A stretch of DNA of 64,000 nt from Hyphomicrobium sp. (GTDB lineage: Bacteria; Pseudomonadota; Alphaproteobacteria; Rhizobiales; Hyphomicrobiaceae), in the NCBI GenBank assembly GCA_002928955.1, contig PERT01000010.1:1-64000 (forward strand), in the 5' to 3' direction. The position numbers were made by a program, and so were the translations under genes. Below, piece by piece: positions 42,021-64,000 of this stretch. Below the pieces are notes generated by a model that did no database searches, was not told the origin of the DNA, and saw only the letters and a program-made list of their open reading frames with translations. Position 1 is the stretch's first letter. Every line of letters begins with the position of its first letter.

Positions 42021-43586
42021 TCAGTCGAGTTCCATTGAAACAGGGAATGGCACGTAACCGACATACCCCGCCTGCTTCAGGCAACTCGCCTCTCCTTGAA
42101 GTATTCGCCCCTGGAGTTTCAAATTAAAGCTGCACTGAGATCTCGTACCTACCGCCAACTTCGACGTAATCACGATGCCACGTGCGCCAATTCTAATGTC
42201 TCCAGTATGGTGTTCGCTACGATCGCCACGTATCGACCAGATCGTACCTTTGGCCTGAGACAAATCGTTGACGTTGTGCTGAAACGTCAGTACTCCACCC
42301 GTGTCGTCGTACATCTTGCGAAGCCCTCCCCCCTGCAAACTGCGAAGCGCGTTATTTCTATCTCGCTGTTGCGTAATCTGCTGGGCTTCCTTTACCTGCG
42401 ACCAAAGCCACGGAGGTAGATCAAATCGAATCAAGAATTGCTTGTTATTTATGAACCAAGCTCCTAGCGCGAATATCCGATCATCGTCCCGTGCAGACGA
42501 AAGTCCTTCCTTTATAAGCTCGCGAACTTGAAGGTCATTGTTGGCTTCTACAGCCTTCTTAAGACGCTCCCTGAACTCGTCTTTCGCTATTCTTCCGAGT
42601 TCCACTTCCGGAATGACCTTGTTGCTATCGTTTACCCGCGCTGTCTCCGATGCGCCAGATCCGGCCACTGCTTTTACCGGCGGTGGCAACCGCAACTGTC
42701 CCGCCTCGAACACGAAGTCGCCCCGGTCATAGCCGAGTGCGTTCAGCTTGCCGTAGCGCGGCGTCTGCTTGTTGCCCGTCAGGTTGGTCAACTTGTCGTG
42801 CAGGAAGAGGCCGAGCTCGGACCCTGTGATATAGCCGTCGCCATTTGCGTCGGCTTGCGGTTCCCTGCCGGCAAGCGCATCAAGGAACAGCTGGCGAAAC
42901 GTGCCGTCGTCGGCGACGAGTTGCTCGGCCTCGCCCGACGACACGAACTGGCGGACCGGCTCGGCCGTCGCCAGTGTGATCGCCGCGGGTGGCGTGGCGC
43001 GGGCCACGTTGAACACACTGCCGGAGAAGCAGGAATCGAAGATCGCCAGCACGTGCTTGGCCTTCGCCTCGCGCATGTACTCGCCAAAGCGGCGCACCGA
43101 TATCGCCCGGCGACGGAACGCCGTGGCGTTGTCTGGCCCCACCGCGTCGGCGGGCACGATATAGCCCTCACCATCGATGGTATGGCCGTGCCCGGCGAAC
43201 CACAGCAGTAGCCGCGCCTCCGGATCGGCGCCCTCGACGACGAAGAAATCCTTCAGCGCCCGGTCGAGATCATCGGACTTGAGATCCTTGAGTAGCGTCA
43301 CCACGAAGCCCTGGGCCTTCAGCGCGTCGGCTACTCCCAGAGCATCCTTGACGGCGCCCGATAGCTTCGGCCAACCCCTCTCGGTGTAACTGTCGATACC
43401 GATGACGAGGGCCTTGGACTTCGCGTAAAGCCGCACCTTCCCGGCTTCCGGCGCATCGGTGCGAGGCGCGGCGCGCAGCGTGACATCGAGTGCGCCGGAT
43501 TGTGCGAGCGCGGGCACGGGGCCCAACGCGATCAGTGCGAACAGCACGAACGCCAAGCGTGCGATGACGTGTGCGTCCCCGCCCAT
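42021..43586 (-). CDS. Exported caspase-family protein with EF-hand loop (caspase A)
   Basis: This 521-aa C14 peptidase has a signal peptide (to ALAQ), a caspase domain (about 50-300) with catalytic His133 in WFAGHG and Cys186 in IFDSCFSG, and a canonical EF-hand loop (DANGDGYITGSE, residues 246-257) inside that domain. The C-terminal 200 residues form an unidentified domain (RLKKAVEANNDLQVRELIKE, GTIWSIRGDRSEHHTGDIRI). It lacks the propeller chassis of its three larger neighbours. The ATG is chosen at MGGDAHVI; a TTG eight codons upstream is possible. It is the last gene of the cluster, with a 580-bp gap before it, so it may have its own promoter. The 3' half has lower G+C. Confidence 0.87.
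   Translation of the reverse strand: MGGDAHVIARLAFVLFALIALGPVPALAQSGALDVTLRAAPRTDAPEAGKVRLYAKSKALVIGIDSYTERGWPKLSGAVKDALGVADALKAQGFVVTLLKDLKSDDLDRALKDFFVVEGADPEARLLLWFAGHGHTIDGEGYIVPADAVGPDNATAFRRRAISVRRFGEYMREAKAKHVLAIFDSCFSGSVFNVARATPPAAITLATAEPVRQFVSSGEAEQLVADDGTFRQLFLDALAGREPQADANGDGYITGSELGLFLHDKLTNLTGNKQTPRYGKLNALGYDRGDFVFEAGQLRLPPPVKAVAGSGASETARVNDSNKVIPEVELGRIAKDEFRERLKKAVEANNDLQVRELIKEGLSSARDDDRIFALGAWFINNKQFLIRFDLPPWLWSQVKEAQQITQQRDRNNALRSLQGGGLRKMYDDTGGVLTFQHNVNDLSQAKGTIWSIRGDRSEHHTGDIRIGARGIVITSKLAVGTRSQCSFNLKLQGRILQGEASCLKQAGYVGYVPFPVSMELD
42816..42851 (-). other. EF-hand calcium-binding loop in caspase A
   Basis: The 12-residue loop D-A-N-G-D-G-Y-I-T-G-S-E has acidic or oxygen ligands at positions 1, 3, 5, 9 and 12, Gly at 6 and Ile at 8, the complete EF-hand consensus. 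Confidence 0.8.
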
Positions 43587-44170
43587 TGTGATGCCGATCC
43601 CGCCAATCAAAGACTCGCCCCCTCGCCCGAGGAGGATAACGGGGAGTTTAGCACGACTATGGTCATGCCTGCCAACTAGCCGACTTAGGCTTCCACGATC
43701 CCAATCCGGATTTTCAGGCCGAGTTGCCGGTTGGTTTCAAATGGGTCAATGAAGACTGCGAAGCAGCATTCGATCAATCTATATCGATAGCCGATTTCTA
43801 TTTGCCAAGCGCGTAGTTTGCCAGAGGCGCAGGGTGTGTGATCGGACCTCCACCGGTTCGGTGGAGAGCCGAAGGGTAAAAACATTTTTTTACACGTCTT
43901 AGCAATTAGTTATATGGCGGTGGAGGCAGTCATGGGCGAGGCTGTCTCAGGCCGGAATTGCGCAGGATCAGGGAATTTTGTCAGATTCAGGGGATTTTTC
44001 GAGGCTAAGAACGACGAATTACAACGAGATTTCCGCCACTTAGCTGGAAAATTCCCTGCAGACCTAACAGGGAATTTTGCAGGTGGAACAGGGAATTTTT
44101 TCAAGGGTGCAGGGAACGACCGCGGAACATCAGGGAACGATCCCGATCTGGTCCGAGTTGCCCGCACCCC
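43587..44170. other. Intergenic region with degenerate CAGGGAATTTT repeats
   Basis: About 580 bp between two minus-strand caspase genes. The part from about 43965 to 44140 holds repeated copies of (A/C)AGGGAATTTT-like words in both orientations. No gene is supported; a 123-aa plus-strand frame here is a product of the repeats. A promoter for caspase A should lie near 43590-43700. Confidence 0.5.
43967..44142. repeat. Dispersed CAGGGAATTTT-type short repeats
   Basis: At least five copies of CAGGGAA(T/C) are seen (around 43970, 43990 in variant form, 44068, 44089, 44120 and 44139), and one inverse copy AAAATTCCCTG (about 44049-44059). Spacing is irregular, so this is not a CRISPR or a tandem array. 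Confidence 0.6.
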
Positions 44171-47100
44171 TCAAAACAGCGAGAAGTCGCCGACCATCAG
44201 GTTCCGTGCGATCCACGGTGTCTGCGTACCGACCTCACTCGCGCCCTTCTGGGCTGCAACACCTTCTCTTGCCGGGCGCCCGTAGACAATCACCTTTTGC
44301 TTCACTCCGCGCAACAGTTCGCTGATCTCGATCATACCGTTCTTGTCGAGATCGTGTTCCGCGCGGCGCCCTGCGATTACATCCGCGACAGCAAGGCTGA
44401 ACAACCCGCCGCCCACGCTCGGACTCTCGTAGGAGAACTCGCGGCCCTTAGAGGCCGCAAACAAGACCACGTTCGATGGCATCGCAGCCAAAGCCTGTGC
44501 CGCAATGTCATCGTTGCTTGCAAAGAATTGCGTCCCCGCCATGCCGCTGTGGCACGCATCGAGCAACACCACGACTCGTCCCTTGAAATTTCGGAAGCTC
44601 TCGGCGAGGTCCGGCCACGAGATCGCTGTGTTTTTGAGGTCGGTGAGAACCGTATCGTGCATTGCTAGGTAGAATTGTCCCTTGGCGTCGCCGACGCCGT
44701 GGCCGGAGAACGACAAGACTAGCGTCTCACCCGGCTCAGCGCTGCTTGTCACTTCTTCGACTGCAGCGAGAACCGAAGCTCTCGTGACGAGATTATTCAC
44801 GAGCGGTTTGACCTTGCCGACGGCACGTCCGGCGGCACTGGCCGACGTCCTGACCGCATCCACGAGCCGACCGGCATCCGCAGCCGCGACATGCAGGGGC
44901 GGGAGGCCGGAGCCGGTGTAGGTATCGACGCCAATCGCGACTATCGAAATACGGCCTAGTGAGGGTGGCGCACCCAGGTCGCGTCCCATCGGCTGGCTTG
45001 CCATACCCGCGCCGTCGATAGCAAGTAGCGTGGCCCATCGCGCACCTGGAAGCCGCGCAACATCGAGTGGAGCGTTGCGCGGATCGGCAATGGGCTCTAT
45101 GCGGTCGGTCAGCACTCCATCTTGATACACATGCACTGCACGCACGCCATTCGGCGCATCCACAATCGCTTTCCCGACGATGCGTCCGGCCTCAGCTGTC
45201 TCCAGCCTGCCGTCGAGTACCGGTGGCGTCTGGACCGCCGGCTTCGGCAACAGCTCACCCCCCAGGACTTTCCGCGCCAAGCCGGGCACGCGAAGCGTGC
45301 GCTCGAACTGGTGGAAGGCGTAGCTGCCGGACCGACCGGGAAGGCGGACGTTGACGAGTTGGGCGCCCTCGACAGAGGCGTCATAGAGCGCGTCATCGGT
45401 CCAGACGACGATCTCGTCATCCACAATGCGACCACGCAAGCGAACCGTGCCATCGGAGACGCGATGGATGAAGAACGAGCCGTCGGCGTCGATCTGAAGT
45501 AACAGTTTGGCAGTTGGATCAATCATCACCTCAGCGAGGCGCGCGGTGCCCGGCCACTGCGGCCACGAACGCACAGTCCGCTTCGCGGACCACTGGACGA
45601 GTTCGGCGGTCCGGGTGACCTTGTTTACCGCAAGCATCAGGCCGTCGCCGAACCACCAGACACCGACGTCACCCGACGACAGACGTTCGAGCCTCTCCTG
45701 CGCGAACGTCTTGAAGATCGGATTGCCGTAGACGGGTCCGAAGTTTGCAATACCGCCTGCGCTGATCACATGGATGTTGTCGTAGAAGACTACCGACTCT
45801 GTGCCGATGTTCGGGCATAGCTTCCAAAGCAGCCATTCTGCCCCGGTTGCCTTCCCGATCTCGAAAGCGCCGACCACCCCCTTGCCCAACGAGATCGGGT
45901 CGCCGACGCGCTCGTAGTGGCTCATCTCGCCCATTCCGCAGGATTCGTCACCCAGTTCCGGTCGACCGAGCGTCAAGGAGAAGCGGTCCGCCGCCCGAGG
46001 CCAACGGCTTGATATGGCGGCTAGCAATTCCGCTGGGTTGTTGAAAGATAACGACTTGGTCCTGCCCGTGCTCCAGGTGACGCCTGTCACTTCGCGCAAC
46101 TGCGAGGTTGCCGATTGATCCACTTGGCCACTCGACCTTGCTAAGGCGGAAGTCACTGATCCGAAGCTGCGCAGCTTCGGCAAGCTGGCGATACGCGCGT
46201 CAGAAACAGACAGATACTTCGGTTCGCGCACGCGCCCGATTACGTGCTCATGCTCCTGCCAGTTTCGGACGACATTGAAGAGAGCGTCTCCATCGTCCAG
46301 CTCATAGGACGCGACGGGGGCCTTTGTTGTGTTCTCGAAGCTCGAGATCAGAGCACGGAGTCGCCCTTCTTGACCGGCCGTGTTCCAACTTCCTTTCGGA
46401 CATCTGACGAGTGGCAACTGATCAATTCTTGCGTCTCCGTTGATCAGATCCAATACCTGAAATAGTGAGTTTTCGAGATCGAAACGGGCACCGCCACCCG
46501 GCTCGGTGAGCGGCTGAACGCCTGCGCCCCCTCCTGTGTCACACGGTCTGTGGCCACTCATGATCGAGCTGTGAACGTGGAAGCGACCGAGAAAAGTTCG
46601 GTCTGTCAGGAGGTAGCTGTCCTTCAAGTCCCAAAGGACAGCGTGCCCTTGAACATGATTTAGGACTTTCCCATCGACGGTGTCGGCGTAGCCAAAGACG
46701 GACCACACGGCATTTTGATGTTCTTGTGGAACCTTGGTCGCCTCGAAAGCCACGAAACGTCCAGTGGGTGAGAAGCGCGGCTCCTTGCCTTCAATACGGG
46801 CGATCTCGGTCTCGCCGGGCATCTCGATCAACTGGAACCACGTCGGATGAACGCGAAGCAGGCGCGCCCCGTCACTCGACAGGATGCGCTTCGGTTCCGT
46901 TGAAATATCGGCGTCCGGCAATGCGAGGACGGACGGGCGGCCAGCTTGGACATCGAGCGCGACTTCTCCGCGCGAACCCCGGCGGGTTTCGCGGCACGGC
47001 TGCGCATGGCCGATCCCGATCGCACGGACCTGTTGTGGCCCCGCCGTCAGCAGCTCGATCGACAATTTTCCGGTGCGTGGAACGCCGCCGTAGAGCGGCA

Positions 47101-47878
47101 CGACGATGCGCGTGCTCTGCTCCTCGACGTTGAGGCCGAACGGGAACCGCGCCTTGGGCAGCAGAACAATTGCGTGTTCGGTCGGGTCGACACGAACAGC
47201 GCCCGTGGCGGTCACGACCAGATAGACCGGCGCGGGTCGCTGCGCCGCTTCCGTCGACCAGGACACCGTCACCCGATCGCCAACCGTTGCGCCGCCAGAG
47301 CGAGGAGTAGTGATTTCGACCCGCGTATTTGACAAGACGCGATCGATCAAGGGAAGCTGCTGATCGCAGCTCGCCGTCTCGGCCCACGGCCGACTTGACT
47401 GCGCGGTCTTTGTCTCAGTCCGTCTGAACTCGAGGCGCGAATGCACTCCGTTCTGTCGATAACCGACGACCTGGCAACCGCGCCAAACAGGCGTTGGTCC
47501 CGTGAGTGCGATGGCCTCACCTCCTTCGCCACCCGTGGTGCCTTCGACGGGATAGGCGGCAGGTGCGCAACCCAGCTTGAATACGTAGGCCGTACCCTTA
47601 ATGCGACCGCCTGAGATCCGGGCGTCAATAAGCTTCGTGCCCGGCGCGATTGTCTGCTTGAGCCCGTCTCTCGGCTCCTCGTAGTAGATGAACAGCTCGC
47701 CGCTCGTAGACTGCTCCACTTTCATTCGGGAGCCGTTGTGGTTCCATGTGCCGCTGAGGCCGGGTGAGGTCGTAGTCTGCGCGTGGACATTGCCCACCTG
47801 CACGACAGACATTGCTGCCAGAGCCATCAGCCATGGCAGTCGGTATAACTGGCGGTACGACTGGTTCCAGTCAGACAT
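44171..47878 (-). CDS. Giant exported caspase, propeller chassis (caspase B)
   Basis: This 1235-aa protein has a signal peptide (to NVHAQ), then a unique beta-rich cap (about 35-160, GTWNHNGSRMKVEQSTSGEL), a beta-sandwich (TVGDRVTVSWSTEAA), a propeller-like middle (RFSPTGRFVAFEATK), a pre-caspase module (GRIVDDEIVVWTDDALYDAS), an Ig-like segment, and a C-terminal caspase domain from about 985 with His1060 in FSGHG and Cys1109 in LLDACHSG. An EF-hand loop (DLDKNGMIEISE, about 1176-1187) follows. It ends TPWIARNLMVGDFSLF, a tail shared with two paralogues. GAGAG precedes the ATG. It starts 27 bp after the stop of caspase C and is surely cotranscribed. Confidence 0.88.
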   Translation of the reverse strand: MSDWNQSYRQLYRLPWLMALAAMSVVQVGNVHAQTTTSPGLSGTWNHNGSRMKVEQSTSGELFIYYEEPRDGLKQTIAPGTKLIDARISGGRIKGTAYVFKLGCAPAAYPVEGTTGGEGGEAIALTGPTPVWRGCQVVGYRQNGVHSRLEFRRTETKTAQSSRPWAETASCDQQLPLIDRVLSNTRVEITTPRSGGATVGDRVTVSWSTEAAQRPAPVYLVVTATGAVRVDPTEHAIVLLPKARFPFGLNVEEQSTRIVVPLYGGVPRTGKLSIELLTAGPQQVRAIGIGHAQPCRETRRGSRGEVALDVQAGRPSVLALPDADISTEPKRILSSDGARLLRVHPTWFQLIEMPGETEIARIEGKEPRFSPTGRFVAFEATKVPQEHQNAVWSVFGYADTVDGKVLNHVQGHAVLWDLKDSYLLTDRTFLGRFHVHSSIMSGHRPCDTGGGAGVQPLTEPGGGARFDLENSLFQVLDLINGDARIDQLPLVRCPKGSWNTAGQEGRLRALISSFENTTKAPVASYELDDGDALFNVVRNWQEHEHVIGRVREPKYLSVSDARIASLPKLRSFGSVTSALARSSGQVDQSATSQLREVTGVTWSTGRTKSLSFNNPAELLAAISSRWPRAADRFSLTLGRPELGDESCGMGEMSHYERVGDPISLGKGVVGAFEIGKATGAEWLLWKLCPNIGTESVVFYDNIHVISAGGIANFGPVYGNPIFKTFAQERLERLSSGDVGVWWFGDGLMLAVNKVTRTAELVQWSAKRTVRSWPQWPGTARLAEVMIDPTAKLLLQIDADGSFFIHRVSDGTVRLRGRIVDDEIVVWTDDALYDASVEGAQLVNVRLPGRSGSYAFHQFERTLRVPGLARKVLGGELLPKPAVQTPPVLDGRLETAEAGRIVGKAIVDAPNGVRAVHVYQDGVLTDRIEPIADPRNAPLDVARLPGARWATLLAIDGAGMASQPMGRDLGAPPSLGRISIVAIGVDTYTGSGLPPLHVAAADAGRLVDAVRTSASAAGRAVGKVKPLVNNLVTRASVLAAVEEVTSSAEPGETLVLSFSGHGVGDAKGQFYLAMHDTVLTDLKNTAISWPDLAESFRNFKGRVVVLLDACHSGMAGTQFFASNDDIAAQALAAMPSNVVLFAASKGREFSYESPSVGGGLFSLAVADVIAGRRAEHDLDKNGMIEISELLRGVKQKVIVYGRPAREGVAAQKGASEVGTQTPWIARNLMVGDFSLF
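44318..44353 (-). other. EF-hand calcium-binding loop in caspase B
   Basis: D-L-D-K-N-G-M-I-E-I-S-E fits the 12-residue EF-hand loop at positions 1, 3, 5, 6, 8, 9 and 12. It lies 67 residues after the catalytic Cys. Confidence 0.75.
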
Positions 47879-47905
47879 CAGGGCTCTCTATCTTGCTCGA
47901 GATGC

Positions 47906-50900
47906 TCAAAACAACGGCACTTCGCCGACCATCTGGTTCCTGGCGATCCACGGCGTCTGCCGGCCACCAGTTACCTGCAAGACCTCGCGCTTCACCGCGC
48001 CGTAGAGTTCCGCCAGCTCGATCGCGCCGTTGCCGTTCGTGTCAGTCGCCGCGCGGCCCGAGGTGATCGCGCGCAGGATGGCGTTGGTGAAGCGACCGCC
48101 CTCGCCGCCTGCTCCTTCCTCGCTGTCCTGCCGGCCCTTCGACGCGGCGATCACCGTGATCGGTGTCTTCCGCGCGATCAGCGACGAAACCACGTCGTCG
48201 TTGGTCGAGGCTCCACCGGCCGAGCCGGATCGACACGCATCGAGGAAGATCACAACGCGCGCCTTGGTGCCGTCGAGTGCGCGGCCGATCTCATCCCAGG
48301 CGAGGCCGGTGGCTTCGATGTCCTCCGGCGTCGAATTGCGTGCCATGAGATAGAACTTGCCATCCTTGCCCTGCGATCCGTGGCCGGCGGCGAAGATCAT
48401 GATGGTATCCTCCAGGGCCGCGGCCTTCACCGCCTCGCGAATGCGCGCGGTCAGCCTCGACCGTAGATCGACATCGTCGGCCAGCACCTGCGGGATGATC
48501 TCCTTGTAGACCTCACCCCCCAGCGCCTTCGATGCCTCCTCGAACGTTCGGGCGTCGCGGACGGCGCCGGACAACTGGTACTTTGGCCCCATGTTGTCGT
48601 ACCGATCGGTACCGACCGCGATCAGGTGGAGCCGCCCGGCCGGCCTCCCAGCACCGGACAGCGGCTCGGTTTGCGGAATACTCTCATAACCCTTGGAATC
48701 GATCGCGACCGCCGTGATCCACCGCGCCTCTGGCGGCAGTGGAAGGTCGAGGCTGGTGTCGACGCTCAACCCGGTCACCTCCAGTTCCCGCGACGGTCGC
48801 CCGTCCACGTAGACGTTGAGTCTGGCCAAGCCCACGTCCGATCTTGCCTCGAGGCGGATTTGGGCCGAACGAGACTTATCGGTCTTCGACAGCGACGCGG
48901 ACATCCGAATTGTTGGCGGCGGCGTCAGGTCAGGACGTTTCGGTGCGGGCTTTCCTTGAAGGATGGCGCGGATCGCGTCGGGGCGATCCAGTATCCGCGC
49001 GAACTGATGCACGGTACTGTAGCCCGCACCGCCGGGAAATCTGACATGGACGAAGTGCGCTCCTTCGGGTGTCGAAAGAAAATAGCCGTCTTCGTTGTTC
49101 AGGATCAGCTCGTCGTCGATGAAGTAGCCGCCGAGCAATCGGGCACCCGACTTGACGTTGAAAATCCCGATCCTGCCTCCCTCTGTGAGCATGACCAGCC
49201 GCGAGCGATCGCTGGCGAGGCGGATGTCCGCCGCGAACTCCGCGCCCTCGACATCTCGCATCAGTCCAAGGCGCTTGCCGGTCTTGATATCGTACAGGAC
49301 AATTTTTTGGTTGGGCATGGCGACGATCAGGACTTCGTCATCGGTGATCCAGCCGCGCGCGAGCTTGGCGCTGTTCAGCCCGAATTGCTCGACGTGGTCC
49401 TGACGGCCTTCGGTCAGAGGGACCAACCGAGGTGTTGAACCTGCGCGCTTGGTCAGTAGGCCCAATTGGACGCTTCGCCAGCCGCTGCCGCCCCAACAGT
49501 CCTGCTGTATGAGCCAGTGTCGGTCATCTCCGCGCTGCCAGCCGGTGCGTCCCATGATCCTACGCGGCGAAACGTAGATCCCATGGGAACCATCAGGCGA
49601 ATAGTACTGACATGCGAATTCAGCCGGAACATCCAACAGGGACATAGGCTTGGTGGGCTTATCGTCGCCGATGAGCTTGAGCAATTCGGCGACAGAGCGC
49701 TGGTATGCGGAGCTATTGACATGCTCACGCAACACGTCTGCCAAATCCTGGTCCCAACTTGTATCGCCTTGTAACGGAACCACATAGCGTTCGTTATAGA
49801 GCGGTCCGCGTAACGGCGACCTGGGGAGGTTCTGCTTGAACGTTAACCCAGAAAGTCGAGATAGACGGTCGGCGAACTGCCCGAAGAAGTCGGTGCTCGC
49901 CGGGCTTTTGCTCCGAACGGCCGCTCTCACCTGATCAAGGCGAGCCGCCGCGACCACGATGCTTGCTGGCTTCGTGTCTTTCGGCCGCGCGTGCGTGGCG
50001 CGCCTAGCGGACAGGTACTCGTAGTCCCTCAGATCGCTGGCGTGCTGCTCGCGGACTTGGCGGATCGAATCCGCCTTCGCTTCCGCCGTCGCAAACTTGA
50101 TGCGCTCTTCCTCCCTCAATCTCTCGTTCAAGTCGGGCGGGCTGTTAGGAACGTGCGTGAATGTTACGTCTCCTCCCAACTGCCACGCAAAACTTCTATT
50201 GCCGGCGGGCCGCTCCGGGAGTGGAAACGCATACCTGGGTGAGATAGACCGAGGATTGACTAGCGAAACCCACTTCGGTTTCGGCGGATTGTCGATATAG
50301 CTCTCTCTGTAGGCTACGCCCAAGCTATCGAACTCGGCACTTATGGTCGTATCACTAATCGTTGCATGTTTGCCGCCCTCCACCACCAGGACCACGGGCT
50401 TCCGGTCGACAAGGGTATTGTAGATCTGTCCGTCGCCCTTCCGTGGACCCGTCAGCACGACGCTGTCACTTGGCCCCCACGCCACTGGGAGCACGCCCCG
50501 CCCGATATAACTGCCGATCTCCTCGCTGCGAAATCCGCCGATAGACGTCCGCGAAACAAGGTCGACGATTTCGATCGAGTGCTTATCCTCGAGAAGGGCG
50601 GACACGAACCGCGCCGTTGGTGAGAATTCGGGATCGGTGCCGACGCGCTGGACGATCAGCTCGCCGCTCTGGAGATCAAGGACACGGTAGTAGTTCGAGA
50701 ACTCCTGCAGCATGTAGCGACCGTTCGCTGAATGGATCGTTCGAGATGGAGCCTCGAGCGTGAACTGATCCTGCACCACGATATGCGGCCGGCTCGGCCG
50801 GACGTCGAAGGACAGGTCGGTGCTGTCGAGTGTCGCGATGACAGCCCTGTCGCCGGCAAGGTCTGCGACGCTCCGTGGCTCGGACGACCACGTCGGAACC

Positions 50901-51793: not shown

Positions 51794-51863
51794 CGACAGG
51801 TCTCCGGAAATTCCGGCTCCTCTTCTATTGTGTACGGCGTCGTGGACCGCGAAGTGAGCACAT

Positions 51864-56135: not shown

Positions 56136-56289
56136 TGAAAACACTTCACAGCAGAACGCATATTTTCGACAGCAACAGGCCGGTGTCCAAACTCCAATGT
56201 TAGAATTCAATTTTGCCCCGTAGGCCACCTCAAGACGGCTTGTCAGTTTCGTCACTTCGGGATGCGTGTCGTCCAAAGGTGCCGGCTCG
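56136..56289. other. Gap between caspase D and CHAT1
   Basis: This 154-bp stretch separates the stop of caspase D from the start of CHAT1. It is the longest gap among the five upstream cluster genes and could hold an internal promoter. No gene is seen. Confidence 0.4.
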
Positions 56290-59200
56290 TCAGAACACCG
56301 CGAAATCCCCAACCATCTCCTGGCGCACGAGCCACGGTGTCTGGCTGCCGTTGGTCACTCTCGTCACGACGTCCTTCAGTCCGCGAAAGATCTCGCTCAC
56401 CTCGAGCACGCCGTTCCGGTTGAGGTCCTGCTCGTCTCGACCCTGCGTTATGAGCTTTGCCAGACCCTGCGTGAAGACACCGCCGCCCGCTCCGGGCAGT
56501 TCCTTGCTGAATTGACGCCCCTTGGAGGCTGCGATGATCAGCATGGGGGTGCGTGATGATTCCGAAATAGCCGCTACTGCATCATCGTTGGTGGCTTGCA
56601 ACTGGGCACCGGTCTGGCCGGAATGGCACGCATCGAGAAGCACGATGACGCGAGCATTGGCACGCCCGAGCACCGTTGCAAGGCGCGACCATTCGAGCGC
56701 TGTCCCATCCAGGTCATCTGCACGCGTCGTCGAAGTCGTCATGAAGAAGCGGCCATCAGGGGACCTGGCGCCATGTCCCGCAAAGAACAACATGAGTGTA
56801 TCGCCAGCCCCCGCTTCAGCCACTTTGGCTTCGAGAACCTGGAGTATCCGGTCCCCCGTCGCTTCGCGATCGCGCAGCAGCGAAGCCTGGACCTTCGCGT
56901 AGTAGCCGCCTTTGATGTTGTTCGATGCGCCGACAAGCGCTTCGGCATCTGTCCTGGCGAAACCGAGCCTGCTGAGGTGATCATACTCATCTACGCCGAC
57001 AGCGAGCAGATGCAGGGTGTTGACCTTGCGGGGCGGAGCGTCGAGGGGGGCGGTGACGGGAACGCTTGTCAGACCTGAGGCGTCGACCGCCACGAGCGTC
57101 AACCAGCGCGCCTGAGGCTGTCGATGAATCGCGATTGTCGACTCGAAGCTGGCCCCCGAGACAGGCACTGTGTCTGTCGGCCGACCGTCGTGATAGACGC
57201 GCAACTCCTTCAGTCCTGCGGCGGAGCTTGCTTTCACTGCGAGCTCGATCTTCGCGTCGGTCGATTGGCTCATTGCGATGTCGAGTGACGGCGGAGCGCG
57301 CAGGTTAGGCTCGGGTCGGGTTGCCGAACCACCGGCAATCGCCGCCTTGACCAGATCCGGTCTGTCCAAAACGCGCGCGAACTGCTGCAGACTGTGCAAG
57401 CCGTCGCGCCCGGCGAACTTCAGGTGGACGTAATGCGCTCCCTCGTAGCTCGACCAGAAATAGCCTTCCGGCGTGAAGAGGATGATCTCGTCGTCGATGT
57501 AGCGGCCGGACACGACGGTCTTGCCCGACGGGATTTCGTAGACGTGGAAGCGCCCATCGGTATTGAGCTGGACCAGCTGCCGACCGTCGTGCGTTCGCAG
57601 CAGGTAGCGGGTATCATGCACATCCTTGAGGCCGTACATGAATGTCGGCGGCTCGGGACGCTCGAGGTCGACAACGGCTGCGGAGCTACCGGCAGGTGCA
57701 GCAACAAGGAGCCAGCGGTCGGCATAGAGAAATGGGCGCACGCGCACGAGCTGATCCGACCTCCAGCCCAAGAACGTCTTGTGAAGGCCGTCTGCATCAT
57801 AGCTCGCGCGATCCGCCGCGGACAGATTGACGATCTTTCCCCTGCCTTTCAGGTCGCCCAGATACATCACGACCGATGACGCGTTGAGGCCTCCACGCCA
57901 CCCATATACTTGCTGCGTCACCCAGCTGATCTGGCCCTTGAAGGACCAGCGCCAAAGTCCGTTGGCACCACCTTGGTGCACGGGCTCTTCCGTGAGCCGA
58001 AAGCGGACGAGCCGATTGCTGCGGTCGCTGTCGTCTGGCCACTCATGATAGGTGGTGTCCTCCTCAGGCGCCGCGATCGCGGTGAGTGCTATCGGCACTT
58101 CGCGCGCAAGGGCCACTTGAAGCTCAGACGCCGGTCTGGTGAATTTCGCAACATGGTCCCAACTGACAAAGTTCGCTTGCCTGTTGAACGTGCTCGACGC
58201 GACAAAGTTCTCGATTGGGATTTGCCCGGTGACACCTCTGCAATTCTGGTCCACGCATATGCCAAACTCGCTCAACCGCTCGGCAAAGCGGGACAACTCA
58301 GTGTCGCCCATGAGAGGAAGCGATGCCGAAGCGGTCCGGGAGCGCCAATCGGCGGAAGCCAAAGCCATTCTCTGCGATTCGTCGAAACCAGCGACCGGAG
58401 GAGTGGTGCCGCCATGACGCACCAAGCGTGAACTCGGCAGTATGGCGCCCTTAAACCGACTCTCTGCGCCGGCGACGCCAAACTCGATGTCCTCATCGAT
58501 ATGGCTGAGGCGGATAGGGCCGTCCGCGTGCCATCCCTTGAAGCCGTCGAAATTAGATATGCCGAGCGCCAATAATGCACGCCGCACATCATAGGCCTGG
58601 GGCCACTTCCCCTCACCGAGCCGGATAGAGTCAGCCTGCGGTCTTTTCCCTGAGGCAAGATCGAAAATCTTGAAACCGCCAATTGTATTGTAGACCAGCA
58701 CCAAAGCTTGGCTCGGAAATATGCTGATCGGGTGGTGCGCCCAAGGATATCCTTTGACAATGGACGTAGTGATCCGTCCGGCTTGCCATGTTGTCTCCGC
58801 GTCCGCGGTCACTGATGGCATTGGATCAACCAATGTCGTAGCGACGGAAACATTGTCTGATGTGGCTCCAGTGATCAATACGCCATCGTGCATTGCCCAG
58901 CCAATAGAAGACCCAGTGGCTCCCGAGAGGTCAACCTGGGTTCGACACAAGACATCGAATATTTCTAGCGCGGAGGTACTGTACGCGCCAACGAACCTCG
59001 CCTCGGGCGAAAAGTTCGGCTCGACACCCACGCGATCCGCGATCTTGACGCCGGTCGCGATATCGAACACGCGGTAGCTGCCCGGGAATACCTCGAGACG
59101 GTAGCGCCCGTTGTTCGAGATGATCGTGCGCTCCGGTTTCTCCAGCGTATAGAAATCCTGCATCACGATCTCGGGGGCGCCGGCCTCGACGGAGACCTCC

Positions 59201-60264
59201 GGAAGCTGACCAGACGTCACCACGGTCTCGCCGCACGACGACTTCGCGATCAGTGCGTGCGCGATGCGGAAGGGGCCGGCCTGGTACACCTTGACCGCCA
59301 ACTCGTCGGACCGGGGCGCCGTCTCCGAGGTCAACGGAAGCACGACGCGCAACTTGTCCAGGCCGTACGTGAGGCCGGCTGGTGCTGGCGCTCTGGGCGG
59401 GAGGGGCAGGAGATACTTGCCGCTGAAACGAACCCATTCTGGCATCGTCAGCACGAGATGCAGCGATGTATCCCTCGGGAGGTTCCAGTCGCCCCTGCGC
59501 CAGGCAATCGGGATCGGCTGTCCGGCCTTTGCGGCTCCCTGATGTCGGAGCGTGACTGAAACCGCGCGCGCCGCGCGCGCCAGTATCGCAGCGTCCGAGC
59601 TGCATTCGGCCGCGGATTTGACCGCCGGGGTAGGCATGATCGGGGCGGGCCCGAGTGTATTCTCCAGCTCGGCAATCCGATCCTTCATCGCGGTCGAAAT
59701 GCAGTCGCCGTCGGAGCCGCAACCGTTGCGCTTGGCGACCCAGGCGCGCTGCGCAGTCTTGAGTTCGTCGGCGCCCTGCGCGCCGACGCGCTTGAGAGCG
59801 TCAGCGTACGCAGCCACCAACTCCAGATCGTACTCTGCGAGCCTCTTGTCGCCGCAGATGGCCTTCTCGACATCCTTGCTGCGCTCCGTGCAGGTGAAGC
59901 TGGGCTTGAACAGCGACCATGAAGGCATCCGCGGGCGCATCTCGCCGTGCTTGCGGCCGAGTGCCAGTCGGCGCTCGGACATGACCGTGAGCAGGCAGCC
60001 GATGTCATCTCTGCACGCGTTTCTCCTCTGCAGCCACGCGCGCTGCTCGCTGCGCAGCTGGCTCTTCTCCGCTTCGGATGCGACGCTCAGAATCTCGCCG
60101 AAATCCTTCGCGATCGCCGCATCTGCGTCCCCGAGATTGACGACGCGGCAGATTGTCAGCTCGGCGGGCAGACGGGCCGTGCCGCAATCGAAGCTGGGAT
60201 TGGCACCGGCCGGCGCAGCAACGGCGAGCGCGAGCATCCATGCCAGGGGCCACATCAACCGCAT
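56290..60264 (-). CDS. Giant exported caspase with two LprI-like domains (caspase D)
   Basis: This 1324-aa protein has a signal peptide (to PAGAN), then two LprI/DUF1311-like repeats (about 22-105: FDCGTARLPAELTICRVVNL and QRAWLQRRNACRDDIGC; about 118-205: FTCTERSKDVEKAICGD and QRAWVAKRNGCGSDGDC). The shared chassis follows: beta-sandwich, propeller (NGRYRLEVFPGSYRVFDI, NFSPEARFVGAYS), pre-caspase module (GRYIDDEIILFTPEGYFWSS), Ig-like segment, and caspase domain with His1164 in FFAGHG and Cys1213 in LLDACHSG. The EF-hand loop DLNRNGVLEVSE lies at about 1280-1291, and the tail is TPWLVRQEMVGDFAVF. AGGAG lies eight bases before the chosen ATG. It starts 82 bp after the CHAT2 stop. Confidence 0.9.
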   Translation of the reverse strand: MRLMWPLAWMLALAVAAPAGANPSFDCGTARLPAELTICRVVNLGDADAAIAKDFGEILSVASEAEKSQLRSEQRAWLQRRNACRDDIGCLLTVMSERRLALGRKHGEMRPRMPSWSLFKPSFTCTERSKDVEKAICGDKRLAEYDLELVAAYADALKRVGAQGADELKTAQRAWVAKRNGCGSDGDCISTAMKDRIAELENTLGPAPIMPTPAVKSAAECSSDAAILARAARAVSVTLRHQGAAKAGQPIPIAWRRGDWNLPRDTSLHLVLTMPEWVRFSGKYLLPLPPRAPAPAGLTYGLDKLRVVLPLTSETAPRSDELAVKVYQAGPFRIAHALIAKSSCGETVVTSGQLPEVSVEAGAPEIVMQDFYTLEKPERTIISNNGRYRLEVFPGSYRVFDIATGVKIADRVGVEPNFSPEARFVGAYSTSALEIFDVLCRTQVDLSGATGSSIGWAMHDGVLITGATSDNVSVATTLVDPMPSVTADAETTWQAGRITTSIVKGYPWAHHPISIFPSQALVLVYNTIGGFKIFDLASGKRPQADSIRLGEGKWPQAYDVRRALLALGISNFDGFKGWHADGPIRLSHIDEDIEFGVAGAESRFKGAILPSSRLVRHGGTTPPVAGFDESQRMALASADWRSRTASASLPLMGDTELSRFAERLSEFGICVDQNCRGVTGQIPIENFVASSTFNRQANFVSWDHVAKFTRPASELQVALAREVPIALTAIAAPEEDTTYHEWPDDSDRSNRLVRFRLTEEPVHQGGANGLWRWSFKGQISWVTQQVYGWRGGLNASSVVMYLGDLKGRGKIVNLSAADRASYDADGLHKTFLGWRSDQLVRVRPFLYADRWLLVAAPAGSSAAVVDLERPEPPTFMYGLKDVHDTRYLLRTHDGRQLVQLNTDGRFHVYEIPSGKTVVSGRYIDDEIILFTPEGYFWSSYEGAHYVHLKFAGRDGLHSLQQFARVLDRPDLVKAAIAGGSATRPEPNLRAPPSLDIAMSQSTDAKIELAVKASSAAGLKELRVYHDGRPTDTVPVSGASFESTIAIHRQPQARWLTLVAVDASGLTSVPVTAPLDAPPRKVNTLHLLAVGVDEYDHLSRLGFARTDAEALVGASNNIKGGYYAKVQASLLRDREATGDRILQVLEAKVAEAGAGDTLMLFFAGHGARSPDGRFFMTTSTTRADDLDGTALEWSRLATVLGRANARVIVLLDACHSGQTGAQLQATNDDAVAAISESSRTPMLIIAASKGRQFSKELPGAGGGVFTQGLAKLITQGRDEQDLNRNGVLEVSEIFRGLKDVVTRVTNGSQTPWLVRQEMVGDFAVF
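56392..56427 (-). other. EF-hand calcium-binding loop in caspase D
   Basis: D-L-N-R-N-G-V-L-E-V-S-E matches the EF-hand loop, with Leu in place of Ile at position 8. The position within the caspase domain is the same as in B and C. Confidence 0.72.
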
Positions 60265-60346
60265 TGAGGAACTCCTAACGGTCACAGCTCAATGTCTACT
60301 CGAAGCTCGCTCGATCAATCCCCCGAGCGGCAGTCAGCGCCTCGGA

Positions 60347-63300
60347 TCAGCCAGCCCCTCCCTCCCCCACCACCACGAATGGCGCCCATACAGAAGGGTG
60401 CGCGGCCCAGGGGCGATCCTTGTTGTTGATCAGCGCCACCATCGCGCGGCGGAAGGCCTCCGCGCGGCCGATCTTGGGCTCGCGCTTCAGCTCCACGAAG
60501 GTCGTGCTGGTCAGCATTGTCGCCGCGTACGAGTTGACCGGCCAGTGGGAAACGAGCAGCGCCCGCGCTCCAGCATAGAAGAACGCCTTAGCGAGACCCG
60601 AAAGAGCTTCCGCGCCGGGCTTGTCCGCGCCTGCTGTATTGCACGCGCTCATCACCACCCAGTCGGCATCGAGCTTCAGGCCCGCCACCTCAGATGCGGT
60701 GAGCAATCCATCATCAGTCTCGCTCGCCGTCTGAGGCGGCGTCATGACGAGCGCGGGCTCGGCGCGACCGTTGGCAAGCTGTTCCGTCTCGCCAGCAAGC
60801 AGCCCGTGCGTTGCGAAGTGGACAATGCGGTAATTCTGGAGTTTCAAACTCTTGATGGTGGTTTCTGTCATCGCGGGGCCGAGCACGATACTGTCAGACT
60901 TCGCGCCGAGGCTTCGGGCCACACACTTGAGCTCATGGGCCGTGTCAGGCAGCGGACAAAGCGTACGGACGGCGGTAACATCAGCCTGCCCATCGCGGAA
61001 CAGTCCCTGCAAGCTGGCCAACACCGTGTTGACGCGGTCACCAAAACTCGGAGCCGTTGAAACCTTGGTCTCTTGTTCCGGACATTTGTCTGGAACGACG
61101 ATTTTGCCACAACCTGGGTGCCCGTCGAGCACCGGATTCCCAAAGCCGATGAATGGCTCCCCTGCCATTGAAGTCTTGGCGTTGCGGCGAAGCGCGGCCA
61201 GACTCGATACGGAAGGCAGCACCGTAATCGCATGCCTGCTCGCGAGCCACTGCGCGCCAGCACCGCCGGCGTCTCCTGCGGGATCGGCAGTCACCAACAC
61301 CTGGAATGGCAAGATGTTCAGAGCTCGAGTTGGGACGATTAACAGCTGCTTATTGCGAACGAGGTCCTCGATACTACCGAACAACGCCTTGTAGAGATCG
61401 TATGACGCGCCGACATCAAAGGGGAGCGGCTCGTTCTGAGCTAACCCATCAGGGCGCAAGCTGACACATGAAGGTTTGCGGCCCTTCCAGCGCTGAGTTT
61501 CGTCGGACCAGTGCCACCCGGTCTGGCGATCAAGACCGCATCTAAGACTATCTACTTTCTCATCGAGCGCCCCGCCGCCGATTTCCAGCTTCACGAGGCG
61601 ACTTTCACTGTGCGTGATGACCCATAGCAGCGATGCCTCCCGCTGGCCTAGTTCGCTTCCAGCGTCGGCGATCACGACCATAGCTTCATTACTTCCCAAT
61701 AGCTCACCAACTTCTGCTATTGAGAGCGCCTTGGTCGAGGCCGCTTCGACATACGATGGATATTCGGTCGCAATACGTCCATTGAGTTGAAGTAGCTTAG
61801 CAATTAAATTAGAACTTGGATTATCTTGCAGACTGGCCTCCTTCAAGAGCGACTCTCGCGAACGGACGAGGCTTTCCAGAGTCGCATCTGCTGATGACAT
61901 GCGAGCGACCATCTTTTGGATCGCACGCTGCGCCTCAGTGTTGGCCATGAATTGAGCGAAGCGGAATGCCTGTTCACTATGAAGGCCCGCTTTATCCGGC
62001 TCACTGATAGCCATCTGAAATTGGGATAGCATGGCCAAACGCAGCAATTGCGAACTTGCACCACGGCCCTCAAAGAGCGATTGCTTCAGATCAGCTTCGT
62101 TTCGGTGGAGTGCTCCAGTCAAGGGTGACACCGCTCGATCGAGAAGTTCGGCAGCCTCGCGCGCATTGCCAGACTGCAAGGAGGCACGCGAAAAACCGCT
62201 AACTAGTTCAATATATCTTTCATATTCTTCCCGAAAACCGCGTGATCGAATAGATTCCACTTGTGCTAGCCCGGCACGATACTGGCTGAGGGCGACTTCA
62301 GGGTGCCCCATGTCCAATTTAAGGTTGGCTTCTTCGATGTTAACAGGATCTATCTGACTGGCTCTCTGAAATCTCTCTGAATTTTCTTGCCAACACTTGG
62401 CTGCTGCTTTAGCCGCCTGAAGCATCAGCTCTGCCTCTTCGAATTTGCGCCCACTTCTAAGCCATTTGACTTCGACGAGACTCAAAGCCATCTCAGCATG
62501 GCAGTATGCACGCCTATCGAAAGGGTTTGGGGCCGGGCGAAACGCGGCTACAGTTCTTCTTGTAGCAACTAAGAACTCTTGCACGGCCTTGTCCTCACCC
62601 TTCCGCAGGAGTTCATCGCCTAAGAACTCGATGAACTCGTAGAAAGGCGTGCGGGTTCCCAGCGTAACGAAGCGCCCCAAATCCAATAGCTCCTTCAACG
62701 CCTCGTCGTGACGTCCAACCGTTCTGAGAAGCTTTGCACGAACTAGTCTAACATGCGCCTCCCATTCCCGTGTTAGTTGCCTCTCGTCTAGCAGGCCCTT
62801 TAGTAGTAGCTCAGCCCCGGCGTAATCTCCGGACCGGACATATGCCTGCGCGCGGGCGGTCTGCCAGTAAACAAATGATCTAAGTTCAAATTTACCGGTG
62901 TGACCGTCGGTACTGCGCAACCTGCCTAGCTCTGTCAGGTTCGCCTTAGTGCGTTCACTCTCGGCATATTTTCCTTGGGCCTCTTGGACTTCCGAAAGAA
63001 GTTGAAGGCGACCTGCAGTCTTGTCGAGTTTGTCCCAGTCGACCTTGCGAGCACCGACCGCTCGAAGCTCATCAATTGAAATATTTAAAGCAGACAGTGC
63101 TTGCTCTGCCTCGCCAAAATTGCCTAGAGCAGCCTGCGCTTCAGCAATACCAAACTTCGCAATTTGATATTCGAAATTCTTGGCACCGTCTCCGGTGGGC
63201 GGCAGCCCTGAAAAGTATATTGTCCTAACTAGTTCCTCCAAGCGCTGAGCCTTTGCGAGCGCGAGAGAAGGATCAGGATATGCCTTGTGAACGATATCCC

Positions 63301-63925
63301 ACGCGCGATTTGCAGGAGAGCTGTCACGGACGGCAATTCTTAACTCGCGAATTTCGCGAAGGCCATCCTGAAACGCAACCTCTGACATAGCCGCAAGTGC
63401 GTTGTTGGTCTGCCCCGTTAAGATCTGGTGTAATCTTCTCAGGCAGCCGAGATAGTCGTATATAGAGTTCTGATGCCACCTCGGCAGTTCACCAAAATTT
63501 TGCCTTGTTAGCGGATGAGCGTCGCGGCTTAGACTGGCCGCAATTATAGGCTGAATAATTTTGGCGTATTCAACAGTCGTTACGTTCGGCGGCAGTGCGT
63601 CACCACTGAGACCAGCGCAAAGTCCGATTGTAGAGGTGGCTATTACCTCGGATTCAAGCAGCCCCGGAGCTGCGAAAACAAGCTTTGCTCTCAAACGGCC
63701 CGCCGTCTGGATAAGCTTGTACCGTGGAATGTCTGCCTGCAATATACTTGGCCGGGATAGCGCAGAATCGGCTTCTGAGAGGAGTATTTCTAGTTTCCGA
63801 CTCTCCTCGTCCGCTTGAGCAGAATCGATCGAGGGCAGAAACAAAAGGGCGCATGCAAGCAGTTGCGTTCCAACATGCATATCCGAAAGGATCCAACGGA
63901 TGAAAGCCACAGTTCGACTTGCCAT
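60347..63925 (-). CDS. TPR-CHAT protease, exported (CHAT2)
   Basis: This 1192-aa protein has a signal peptide (either from the first ATG or from MHVGTQLLACALLFLP, ending SAQA), a helical TPR-type region (about 45-780, for example AEQALSALNISIDELRAVGA and AGAELLLKGLLDERQ), and a C-terminal CHAT domain with catalytic His1040 in HFATHG and Cys1095 in MSACNTA, then GAEALSGLAKAFFYAGARAL. It is most upstream in the cluster and probably heads the operon; GAGG precedes the ATG. The segment coding the N-terminal two thirds (about 61.6-63.9 kb) is clearly richer in A+T than the CHAT-coding 3' end, suggesting a mosaic or recent origin. CHAT1 shares the same layout. Confidence 0.88.
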   Translation of the reverse strand: MASRTVAFIRWILSDMHVGTQLLACALLFLPSIDSAQADEESRKLEILLSEADSALSRPSILQADIPRYKLIQTAGRLRAKLVFAAPGLLESEVIATSTIGLCAGLSGDALPPNVTTVEYAKIIQPIIAASLSRDAHPLTRQNFGELPRWHQNSIYDYLGCLRRLHQILTGQTNNALAAMSEVAFQDGLREIRELRIAVRDSSPANRAWDIVHKAYPDPSLALAKAQRLEELVRTIYFSGLPPTGDGAKNFEYQIAKFGIAEAQAALGNFGEAEQALSALNISIDELRAVGARKVDWDKLDKTAGRLQLLSEVQEAQGKYAESERTKANLTELGRLRSTDGHTGKFELRSFVYWQTARAQAYVRSGDYAGAELLLKGLLDERQLTREWEAHVRLVRAKLLRTVGRHDEALKELLDLGRFVTLGTRTPFYEFIEFLGDELLRKGEDKAVQEFLVATRRTVAAFRPAPNPFDRRAYCHAEMALSLVEVKWLRSGRKFEEAELMLQAAKAAAKCWQENSERFQRASQIDPVNIEEANLKLDMGHPEVALSQYRAGLAQVESIRSRGFREEYERYIELVSGFSRASLQSGNAREAAELLDRAVSPLTGALHRNEADLKQSLFEGRGASSQLLRLAMLSQFQMAISEPDKAGLHSEQAFRFAQFMANTEAQRAIQKMVARMSSADATLESLVRSRESLLKEASLQDNPSSNLIAKLLQLNGRIATEYPSYVEAASTKALSIAEVGELLGSNEAMVVIADAGSELGQREASLLWVITHSESRLVKLEIGGGALDEKVDSLRCGLDRQTGWHWSDETQRWKGRKPSCVSLRPDGLAQNEPLPFDVGASYDLYKALFGSIEDLVRNKQLLIVPTRALNILPFQVLVTADPAGDAGGAGAQWLASRHAITVLPSVSSLAALRRNAKTSMAGEPFIGFGNPVLDGHPGCGKIVVPDKCPEQETKVSTAPSFGDRVNTVLASLQGLFRDGQADVTAVRTLCPLPDTAHELKCVARSLGAKSDSIVLGPAMTETTIKSLKLQNYRIVHFATHGLLAGETEQLANGRAEPALVMTPPQTASETDDGLLTASEVAGLKLDADWVVMSACNTAGADKPGAEALSGLAKAFFYAGARALLVSHWPVNSYAATMLTSTTFVELKREPKIGRAEAFRRAMVALINNKDRPWAAHPSVWAPFVVVGEGGAG

Positions 63926-64000
63926 GATTGCCTCAGCTTTCTTTCCCTCAGCGAAATGCCGGGACAGATATTTGCCTCCCCAATGCTATACAGCGCGAGC
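63926..64000 (-). promoter_or_regulatory. Upstream region of the caspase/CHAT cluster (partial)
   Basis: Only 75 bp upstream of CHAT2 are in the window. A ribosome site (GAGG) is visible before the ATG; a promoter cannot be assigned with confidence because the region is cut by the window edge. Confidence 0.25.

What the first reader, a model, noticed from the sequence alone, without database searches (positions are those of the whole stretch)
42021..63925. Six-gene cluster of exported clan CD proteases (CHAT, caspase, CHAT, caspase, caspase, caspase)
Six consecutive minus-strand genes covering 22 kb all encode caspase-fold cysteine proteases with intact His/Cys dyads: caspase motifs GHG and DSC/DACxSG, CHAT motifs HFATHG and SACNT. 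The upstream five are separated by only 27-154 bp and probably form one operon. Single caspase or CHAT genes are common in bacteria, but alternation of two subfamilies in one run suggests zymogen-activator pairs, that is, a proteolytic cascade. The cascade is inference; the array and the active sites are read directly.
Basis: partly seen in the sequence, partly recalled or inferred. Interest (0 to 1): 0.85.

Follow-up and report, generated by a model that had tools for sequence, protein, structure and literature searches.

The report
Exported caspase operon with conserved partner
A bacterium carries a run of probably exported caspase-like proteases, and next to it sits a small protein, found beside such proteases in many other bacteria, with an unvarying arginine that looks like a place for them to cut.

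Summary
The array is real: six minus-strand genes at 42021-63925, all over Pfam cut-offs for CHAT (2) or caspase (4), with dyad motifs; a model of caspase 1 has the caspase fold (Z 23.1 to 3bij). In the one locus with 70-80% identical caspases (L133) the operon is CHASE2, small exported protein, CHAT, caspase, caspase, caspase: CHAT2 and caspase 4 are missing there, so the alternation is not conserved. The unit runs past the window end: upstream of CHAT1 lie that small protein (contig 64175-64582) and CHASE2 (64598-65935). Relatives of the small protein, found by sequence alone, lie at 54 loci of 44 other genomes; 32 of 54 stretches hold a CHAT or caspase gene (about 0.02 expected), 35 of 54 a CHASE2 gene. 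It carries a motif, L-G-x-x-R then S/G/A, with Arg in 48 of the 48 non-redundant sequences that have a residue there. I propose an envelope signalling module in which CHAT or caspase cuts the partner after this Arg. Association is shown; cutting is inferred. Against it: 22 of 54 partner loci show no nearby protease, and most CHAT and large-caspase loci examined lack the partner.

The parts
60347..63925 (-). CHAT1, 1192 aa, TPR-CHAT, probably exported (first gene of the run inside the window; next upstream on the contig, outside the window, are the small LGR protein at 64175-64582 and CHASE2a at 64598-65935, both minus strand)
   Evidence: Pfam PF12770 7.2e-54 (its TPR match is below the cut-off); HFATHG and SACNT; GC 55.5%, lower than neighbours; upstream genes in L014
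56290..60285 (-). caspase 1, up to 1331 aa: LprI-like N-terminal part, unknown domain, beta-rich middle, C-terminal caspase domain
   Evidence: Pfam PF00656 1.1e-14 and PF07007 1e-10; model of residues 215-1331, pLDDT 76; VIA Z 23.1 to 3bij, 22.7 to metacaspase 4, 21.4 to MALT1; 69-70% identical orthologue in L133
51864..56135 (-). CHAT2, 1423 aa from the likely ATG; extra gene that the syntenic locus L133 lacks
   Evidence: Pfam PF12770 1.8e-47 and TPR over the cut-off; absence from L133
47906..51793 (-). caspase 2, C-terminal caspase domain, same architecture as caspase 1
   Evidence: Pfam PF00656 9.2e-13; 76% identical orthologue in L133
44171..47878 (-). caspase 3, C-terminal caspase domain
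   Evidence: Pfam PF00656 4.4e-11; 80% identical orthologue in L133, there too 27 bp after caspase 2
42021..43586 (-). caspase 4, short, N-terminal caspase domain; 584 bp away, probably not part of the conserved unit
   Evidence: Pfam PF00656 5.8e-18; no caspase in the 3.3 kb between caspase 3 and the contig end in L133/G299

Best explanation
The run is the protease arm of an envelope signalling module. Its parts are a CHASE2 membrane protein, a small exported partner (called LGR here for its L-G-x-x-R motif) and one or more clan CD proteases, either CHAT or caspase. The protease cuts LGR after the invariant Arg when the CHASE2 protein, or the TPR or beta-rich part of the protease, senses an envelope signal. 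In this genome one unit holds both protease classes and several caspase copies. Shown: the anatomy, the recurrence of LGR beside CHASE2 and clan CD proteases, the motif. Inferred: shared compartment, cutting, what starts it and what follows.
For: Conserved operon CHASE2-LGR-CHAT-caspase-caspase-caspase in L133, dN below dS for each gene (LGR 0.205/0.568, caspase 3 0.127/0.505; CHAT 0.631/2.08 with dS saturated). LGR relatives found by sequence alone: 54 loci of 44 other genomes. Of these stretches 32 of 54 (17 of 27 genera) hold a CHAT or caspase (9 CHAT only, 22 caspase only, 1 both), 35 of 54 hold CHASE2, 21 of 54 both. Background in the same 44 genomes: 112 PF00656 and 111 PF12770 places in 184.5 Mb, about 0.02 expected per stretch. 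In 8 of the 11 genomes with only one such protease it lies in the LGR stretch (my tally). Motif: Arg in 48 of 48 sequences with a residue there (49 non-redundant, one gap), next residue S/G/A in 38 of 48 against 30% background, variable residues around it. C14 proteases other than animal caspases prefer Arg or Lys at P1 (PMC5756287, passages); the Asp two before the catalytic Cys is given as part of the pocket in a Nostoc orthocaspase (PMC8283722, passages), the window caspases have it, and a D-x-C string is in 28 of 28 caspase domains at the LGR loci surveyed, the 3 of L133 included (a loose test).
Against: No cutting was or could be tested. 22 of 54 LGR stretches show no CHAT or caspase, yet LGR there keeps the motif; only some lie on short contigs. 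Of the CHAT stretches 39 of 40, and of the large-caspase loci 23 of 24, have no LGR. At LGR loci only 10 of 15 CHAT and 12 of 28 caspase ORFs show a hydrophobic stretch near the N-terminus (mechanical starts, some ORFs cut), so a shared envelope location is not shown in general. Two LGR sequences have Pro after the Arg in the non-redundant set. In the window's LGR the Arg is 4 residues from the C-terminus, so a cut would free only a tetrapeptide. The studied Craspase TPR-CHAT proteases cut non-conserved sites (PMC11106740, abstract and start of text). Aligned homologues are not independent, so the probability for small residues is only a guide.
Confidence: 0.42

Rival explanations
1. Proteolytic cascade: CHAT is the activator and cuts the exported caspases between their beta-rich part and caspase domain; LGR and CHASE2 serve other ends.
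For: One CHAT sits just upstream of the caspases in both syntenic loci. CHAT-caspase neighbours recur in 5 of 40 CHAT stretches, one of them doubtful, and in L129; L116 has CHAT and caspase 1 bp apart. Caspase 3 has two matches to the motif pattern, one of which (residue 776) is kept in L133. A SAVED-CHAT protease starting a cascade of cleavages is cited for type III CRISPR (PMC11229360, passages).
Against: CHAT2 and alternation are not conserved. Beside LGR, CHAT and caspase mostly replace each other: 9 CHAT only, 22 caspase only, 1 both. No match to the motif pattern in caspases 1, 2 and 4 of the window. 23 of 24 large-caspase loci have no CHAT gene in the stretch.
Confidence: 0.25
2. The LGxxR segment is not cut. 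It is a docking or pseudo-substrate segment: LGR binds CHASE2, or plugs the protease active site as an inhibitor.
For: CHASE2 is the slightly more frequent neighbour (35 against 32 of 54). The motif persists where no protease is near. In the window's LGR the motif is at the C-terminal tail. FecR-domain proteins with a predicted signal peptide next to CHASE2 kinases are described in Burkholderia and relatives; the passages read name no such protease in that operon (PMC5192318).
Against: The motif has the look of a P1-Arg site with a small following residue, and clan CD proteases are far more frequent near LGR than expected.
Confidence: 0.23
3. The cluster is a loose accumulation of secreted proteases with separate substrates; closeness reflects gain of similar genes in one variable region.
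For: Large caspases look accessory: three same-genus genomes gave at most weak matches to the caspase domain, though two of them are only 76% and 54% complete, and these caspases occur without CHAT elsewhere. CHAT1 has foreign-looking composition.
Against: Gene order and short gaps kept between two species whose proteins differ by 20-30%, with dN below dS.
Confidence: 0.1

Closest known systems
Prokaryotic caspase homologues (metacaspases, orthocaspases; Pfam PF00656)
   Same: Fold, His/Cys motifs, C14 family; operons with up to three metacaspases and a metacaspase-CHASE2 fusion in Trichodesmium are on record (PMC3501461, passages; PMC2853523, passages)
   Different: Here three large C-terminal-caspase genes in one conserved operon with a TPR-CHAT gene, a separate CHASE2 protein and LGR
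Craspase (Csx29 TPR-CHAT with Csx30)
   Same: TPR-CHAT protease beside a candidate dedicated substrate
   Different: Probably extracytoplasmic rather than RNA-guided; conserved motif in the partner, whereas Csx30 is cut at non-conserved sites (PMC11106740, abstract and start of text); a sequence link between LGR and Csx30 was not tested
Type III-B CRISPR SAVED-CHAT cascade
   Same: A CHAT protease in a multi-protease setting (known to me from PMC11229360, passages, and from recall)
   Different: No SAVED domain in CHAT1 or CHAT2 by Pfam
Burkholderia biofilm operon (LysM-FecR protein plus CHASE2 histidine kinase)
   Same: Protein with predicted signal peptide beside a CHASE2 membrane protein (PMC5192318, passages)
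   Different: No clan CD protease in the passages read; the seven LGR proteins scanned do not match Pfam FecR
Sinorhizobium CHASE2 adenylate cyclases (CyaD1, CyaD2, CyaK)
   Same: CHASE2 proteins that respond to an outside cue (PMC13001267, passages); the CHASE2 protein of L186 bears a cyclase domain
   Different: CHASE2a and CHASE2b here show no cyclase domain; the words caspase and CHAT do not occur in that paper's held text

Membership tests
Caspase / Peptidase C14 (PF00656) | Profile match over the curated cut-off | tested here: met
   4 of 4 caspases of the run
Caspase / Peptidase C14 (PF00656) | Caspase fold | tested here: met
   Caspase 1 only: model residues 875-1117, Z 23.1, rmsd 2.4, 206 aligned to 3bij; the other three were not modelled
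Caspase / Peptidase C14 (PF00656) | His/Cys dyad present | tested here: met
   GHG and D[AS]CxSG in all four; geometry was not measured
Caspase / Peptidase C14 (PF00656) | Protease activity and P1 preference | not testable with these tools
   Only the Asp of D-x-C was checked
CHAT (PF12770) | Profile match and HFATHG / SACNT motifs | tested here: met
   2 of 2
EACC1-associated caspase (NF047832) | Score over the NCBIfam cut-off of 140 bits | tested here: not met
   58.6 to 92.9 bits for the four caspases
Type III-B SAVED-CHAT system | SAVED domain fused to CHAT | tested here: not met
   Pfam shows CHAT and TPR families only at E 0.001
Craspase (Csx29) | TPR-CHAT architecture | tested here: met
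   CHAT2: TPR over the cut-off; CHAT1: TPR match below the cut-off
Craspase (Csx29) | Encoded with a Cas7-11 effector | not tested
   No search for cas genes was made; PADLOC gave the generic caspase model for the caspases and nothing for the CHATs
FecR (Pfam), for the small LGR protein | Match to the FecR profile | tested here: not met
   No FecR match in the seven LGR proteins scanned; 'FecR-like' was my working name from the look of the sequence
LGR-CHASE2-clan CD protease module (defined here) | LGR and CHASE2 next to a CHAT or caspase gene | tested here: met
   Contig 64175-65935 and CHAT1; L133

The most novel reading that the evidence does not exclude
LGR is a hitherto unnamed family of dedicated substrates of bacterial envelope caspases and CHAT proteases: one conserved Arg site serves two protease classes that replace each other, and cleavage passes an outside signal to a CHASE2 membrane protein. 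That would be an extracytoplasmic protease-substrate switch on the lines of Craspase or gasdermin activation, spread over many Pseudomonadota.
Probability: 0.35. Interest if true: 0.85.

Novelty: new variant of a known kind. Interest (0 to 1): 0.68.

Why it matters
To my knowledge (recalled) natural substrates are known for few bacterial caspases, and what exported ones do is open. A small partner found beside them in many genomes, with one unvarying Arg that can be mutated, makes the substrate question directly testable. If right, it would link CHASE2, whose environmental cues were called unknown in PMC5192318 (passage), to proteolysis in the envelope.

Tried and rejected
Motif absent where the protease is absent: my first pattern suggested this, but the alignment showed the pattern was too narrow; the motif is there too, so the argument was dropped.

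CHAT1/CHAT2 as a recent tandem pair: rejected, about 31% identity.

Known defence system: PADLOC gave only the generic caspase model.

LGR fold: the single-sequence model is poor (pLDDT 48) and there is no solved relative by sequence at E 1; not used.

LGR motif pattern in caspases, CHATs and CHASE2 of the window and L133: no copy shared by all; matches in caspase 3 (two), CHAT2 (one inside, one in the stretch before the likely start), and in L133 in CHASE2a, caspase 1 and caspase 3 (one each).

Promoter and terminator scan of 44100-64000: 7 promoter-like sites against 4.0 expected and 10 terminator-like against 15.2; uninformative.

Middle of caspase 1: low-TM matches to chains that I recall as beta-propellers; in L015 Pfam gives sub-cut-off propeller matches. 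Called beta-rich, no family claimed.

Split gene: contig C10 ends in the N-terminal part of a further large caspase (L014:7421-8836) and contig C1 in a C-terminal part (L015:14410-16932) that is followed by a CHAT gene; 472 and 840 aa could be halves of one gene. Not joined and not used in counts.

The 223 protease places were summed by hand; a few places are in both lists. LGR hits under 40 bits were left out of the 65-sequence alignment. Plasmid loci L267-L270 and L014, L078, L132, L133 are not among the 54 but are in the alignment; only 4 of the 12 plasmid hits were opened, and the Niveispirillum record (L267) has the length of contig G473:C3, so it is most likely the same record as L189. 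Five CHAT places (G144, G172, G183, G194 and G247:C18) were not fetched. L134-L156 overlap the genomes. Pfam was run on 7 LGR proteins and NCBIfam on 5.

Not in print: searches (CHASE2 with CHAT domain: no paper) and the listings of 75, 91, 115 (10 of 35 papers shown) and 116 showed no paper on this partner; CHASE2-metacaspase fusions are in print. Only open-licence PMC was searched.

Full report
Check of the finding. Pfam gives CHAT for 60347-63925 and 51864-56312 and caspase for the other four, all over the cut-offs; the motifs of both dyads are present. Likely starts give gaps of 61-82, 154, 70 and 27 bp among the first five genes and 560-584 bp before the sixth. N-termini look like signal peptides by inspection only; a crude hydropathy test passed 3 of 6. 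A model of caspase 1 (residues 215-1331, 29 aligned sequences, mean pLDDT 76) has its best match in GSU0716 of Geobacter (3bij, Z 23.1, rmsd 2.4, 206 residues), then metacaspase 4 and, a little lower, caspase-7 and MALT1. The genome (3.48 Mb, 114 contigs) has 9 caspase and 5 CHAT places.

Beyond the window. On the same contig, upstream of CHAT1 and on the same strand, lie a 120-135 aa protein without a Pfam match and a CHASE2 membrane protein for which Pfam shows no other domain; divergent to them are a second CHASE2 gene and the start of another large caspase that runs off the contig. Two of the three CHASE2 genes of the genome are here.

Synteny. A pattern-based scan of the species genomes for the large caspases gave 24 loci. 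One, L133 (uncultured Hyphomicrobiaceae), holds CHASE2, LGR, CHAT, caspase 1, caspase 2, caspase 3 in the same order, with the divergent CHASE2. Identities: LGR 72%, CHASE2a 80%, CHASE2b 79%, caspases 70, 76 and 80%, CHAT only 42% (48% over the C-terminal 648 aa); dN is below dS in each, with dS saturated for CHAT. CHAT2 is not in this locus; that genome has one other CHAT, on another contig, 36% identical to CHAT2. Caspase 4 is not found in the 3.3 kb before the contig end. None of the other 23 loci has CHAT in the fetched stretch. In the window's family, 60 genomes gave few large relatives: G292, G281, G257 and a frame-split one in G293; the last, L129, follows a CHAT gene. Of three same-genus genomes two gave weak caspase-domain matches only and one none; two are incomplete (76% and 54%). 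So the unit looks accessory.

CHAT loci. I fetched 40 stretches around CHAT relatives from 24 of the 28 other genomes that matched. Five hold a caspase (L080, L091, L111, L116 and L117, where the ORFs overlap and the caspase is doubtful), with both orders among them; this is more than the roughly 1% that the density would give, though those are other genomes. One of the 40, L078, has LGR and CHASE2.

The LGR family. A three-sequence profile of the small protein, searched in 385 genomes of the class, hit 16 including the own genome; an 18-sequence profile in 398 genomes of the phylum hit 30 including the own. All 54 stretches around the hits outside the own genome were read. CHASE2 is present in 35 of 54, CHAT or caspase in 32 of 54, both in 21 of 54, neither in 8; by genus 21, 17 and 14 of 27. 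The same 44 genomes hold 112 PF00656 and 111 PF12770 places in 184.5 Mb, about 0.02 per stretch. Eleven genomes have just one such protease; in eight (G041, G302, G378, G473, G535, G644, G925, G1010) it is in the LGR stretch, in three (G025, G410, G623) it is not. Twelve plasmid records also match LGR, ten of them Sphingobium. Of the four opened, two Sphingobium records have CHAT-CHASE2-LGR, Azospirillum has LGR, a CHASE2-cyclase and a caspase, and Niveispirillum has CHAT-LGR-CHASE2 but is most likely the same record as L189. No Pfam or NCBIfam model matched the LGR part of the proteins scanned, 7 and 5 respectively; two long forms have a C-terminal DUF4384.

The motif. In 49 sequences under 70% identity one column is Arg in 48 of 48 with a residue (one gap), most often preceded by L, G, A, T/V and followed by S, G or A in 38 of 48 (background 30%); columns on both sides vary. 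At 40% identity it is 35 of 35 and 26 of 35. Other columns just as constant are two Gly, a Cys and nearly a Gln and a second Cys, outside the linker. C14 proteases other than animal caspases prefer Arg or Lys at P1 (PMC5756287, passages). In a Nostoc orthocaspase the Asp two before the catalytic Cys is named as part of the Arg pocket (PMC8283722, passages); the window caspases have it, and a D-x-C string is in 28 of 28 caspase domains at the LGR loci. A P1-Arg site is thus the simplest reading, but an inference.

Against it. The motif stays where no protease is near. In two of the non-redundant sequences Pro follows the Arg. In this genome, in L133 and in L078 the protein ends 4-7 residues after the Arg, so a cut would remove only a tail. 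Most CHATs and large caspases examined have no LGR. Only 10 of 15 CHAT and 12 of 28 caspase ORFs at LGR loci show an N-terminal hydrophobic stretch. CHAT specificity is unknown here, and the Craspase CHATs cut non-conserved sites (PMC11106740).

Judgement. The cascade from alternation is weakened by L133 and by the way CHAT and caspase replace each other beside LGR, though CHAT and caspase do meet elsewhere. A CHASE2-LGR-clan CD protease module is the better frame; its mechanism awaits one simple cutting assay.

Noticed in passing
window 26284-28026 (+): A further caspase gene in the window: N-terminal caspase plus PAN domain, 580 aa.
   Followed up: no
L014:7421-8836 and L015:14410-16932: Two contigs of the genome end inside large-caspase ORFs whose lengths would add up to one gene; the second is followed by a CHAT gene. 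Could be a divergent CHASE2-caspase-CHAT arm.
   Followed up: partly
window 60347-63925: CHAT1 has GC 55.5% and GC3 57%, against 60-68% and 70-84% in its neighbours: probably acquired or exchanged.
   Followed up: partly
L179 and L180:2-1777: Around the syntenic operon in G299: a TIR-AAA ORF past caspase 3; on the divergent side CHASE2, a C92 amidase, a trypsin-like protease and a 2057-aa Sel1 repeat protein.
   Followed up: no
L230, L234, L238, L239, L243, L244: Caspases at these LGR loci (three genera) are the C-terminal ends of ORFs of about 1,500-2,400 aa with an LExR...D motif (such as LEPRILFD) near the N-terminus.
   Followed up: no
L269, L270: In Sphingobium plasmids CHAT-CHASE2-LGR is followed by a gene that is annotated ShlB/FhaC in L270 and a very large ORF.
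   Followed up: no
L132:12303-12740: LGR in another genome of the window's family (G264) with two GGxR copies, between a caspase gene and CHASE2.
   Followed up: no
L116, L111, L091, L129: CHAT and caspase genes side by side without LGR, in both orders: a possible second kind of pairing.
   Followed up: no
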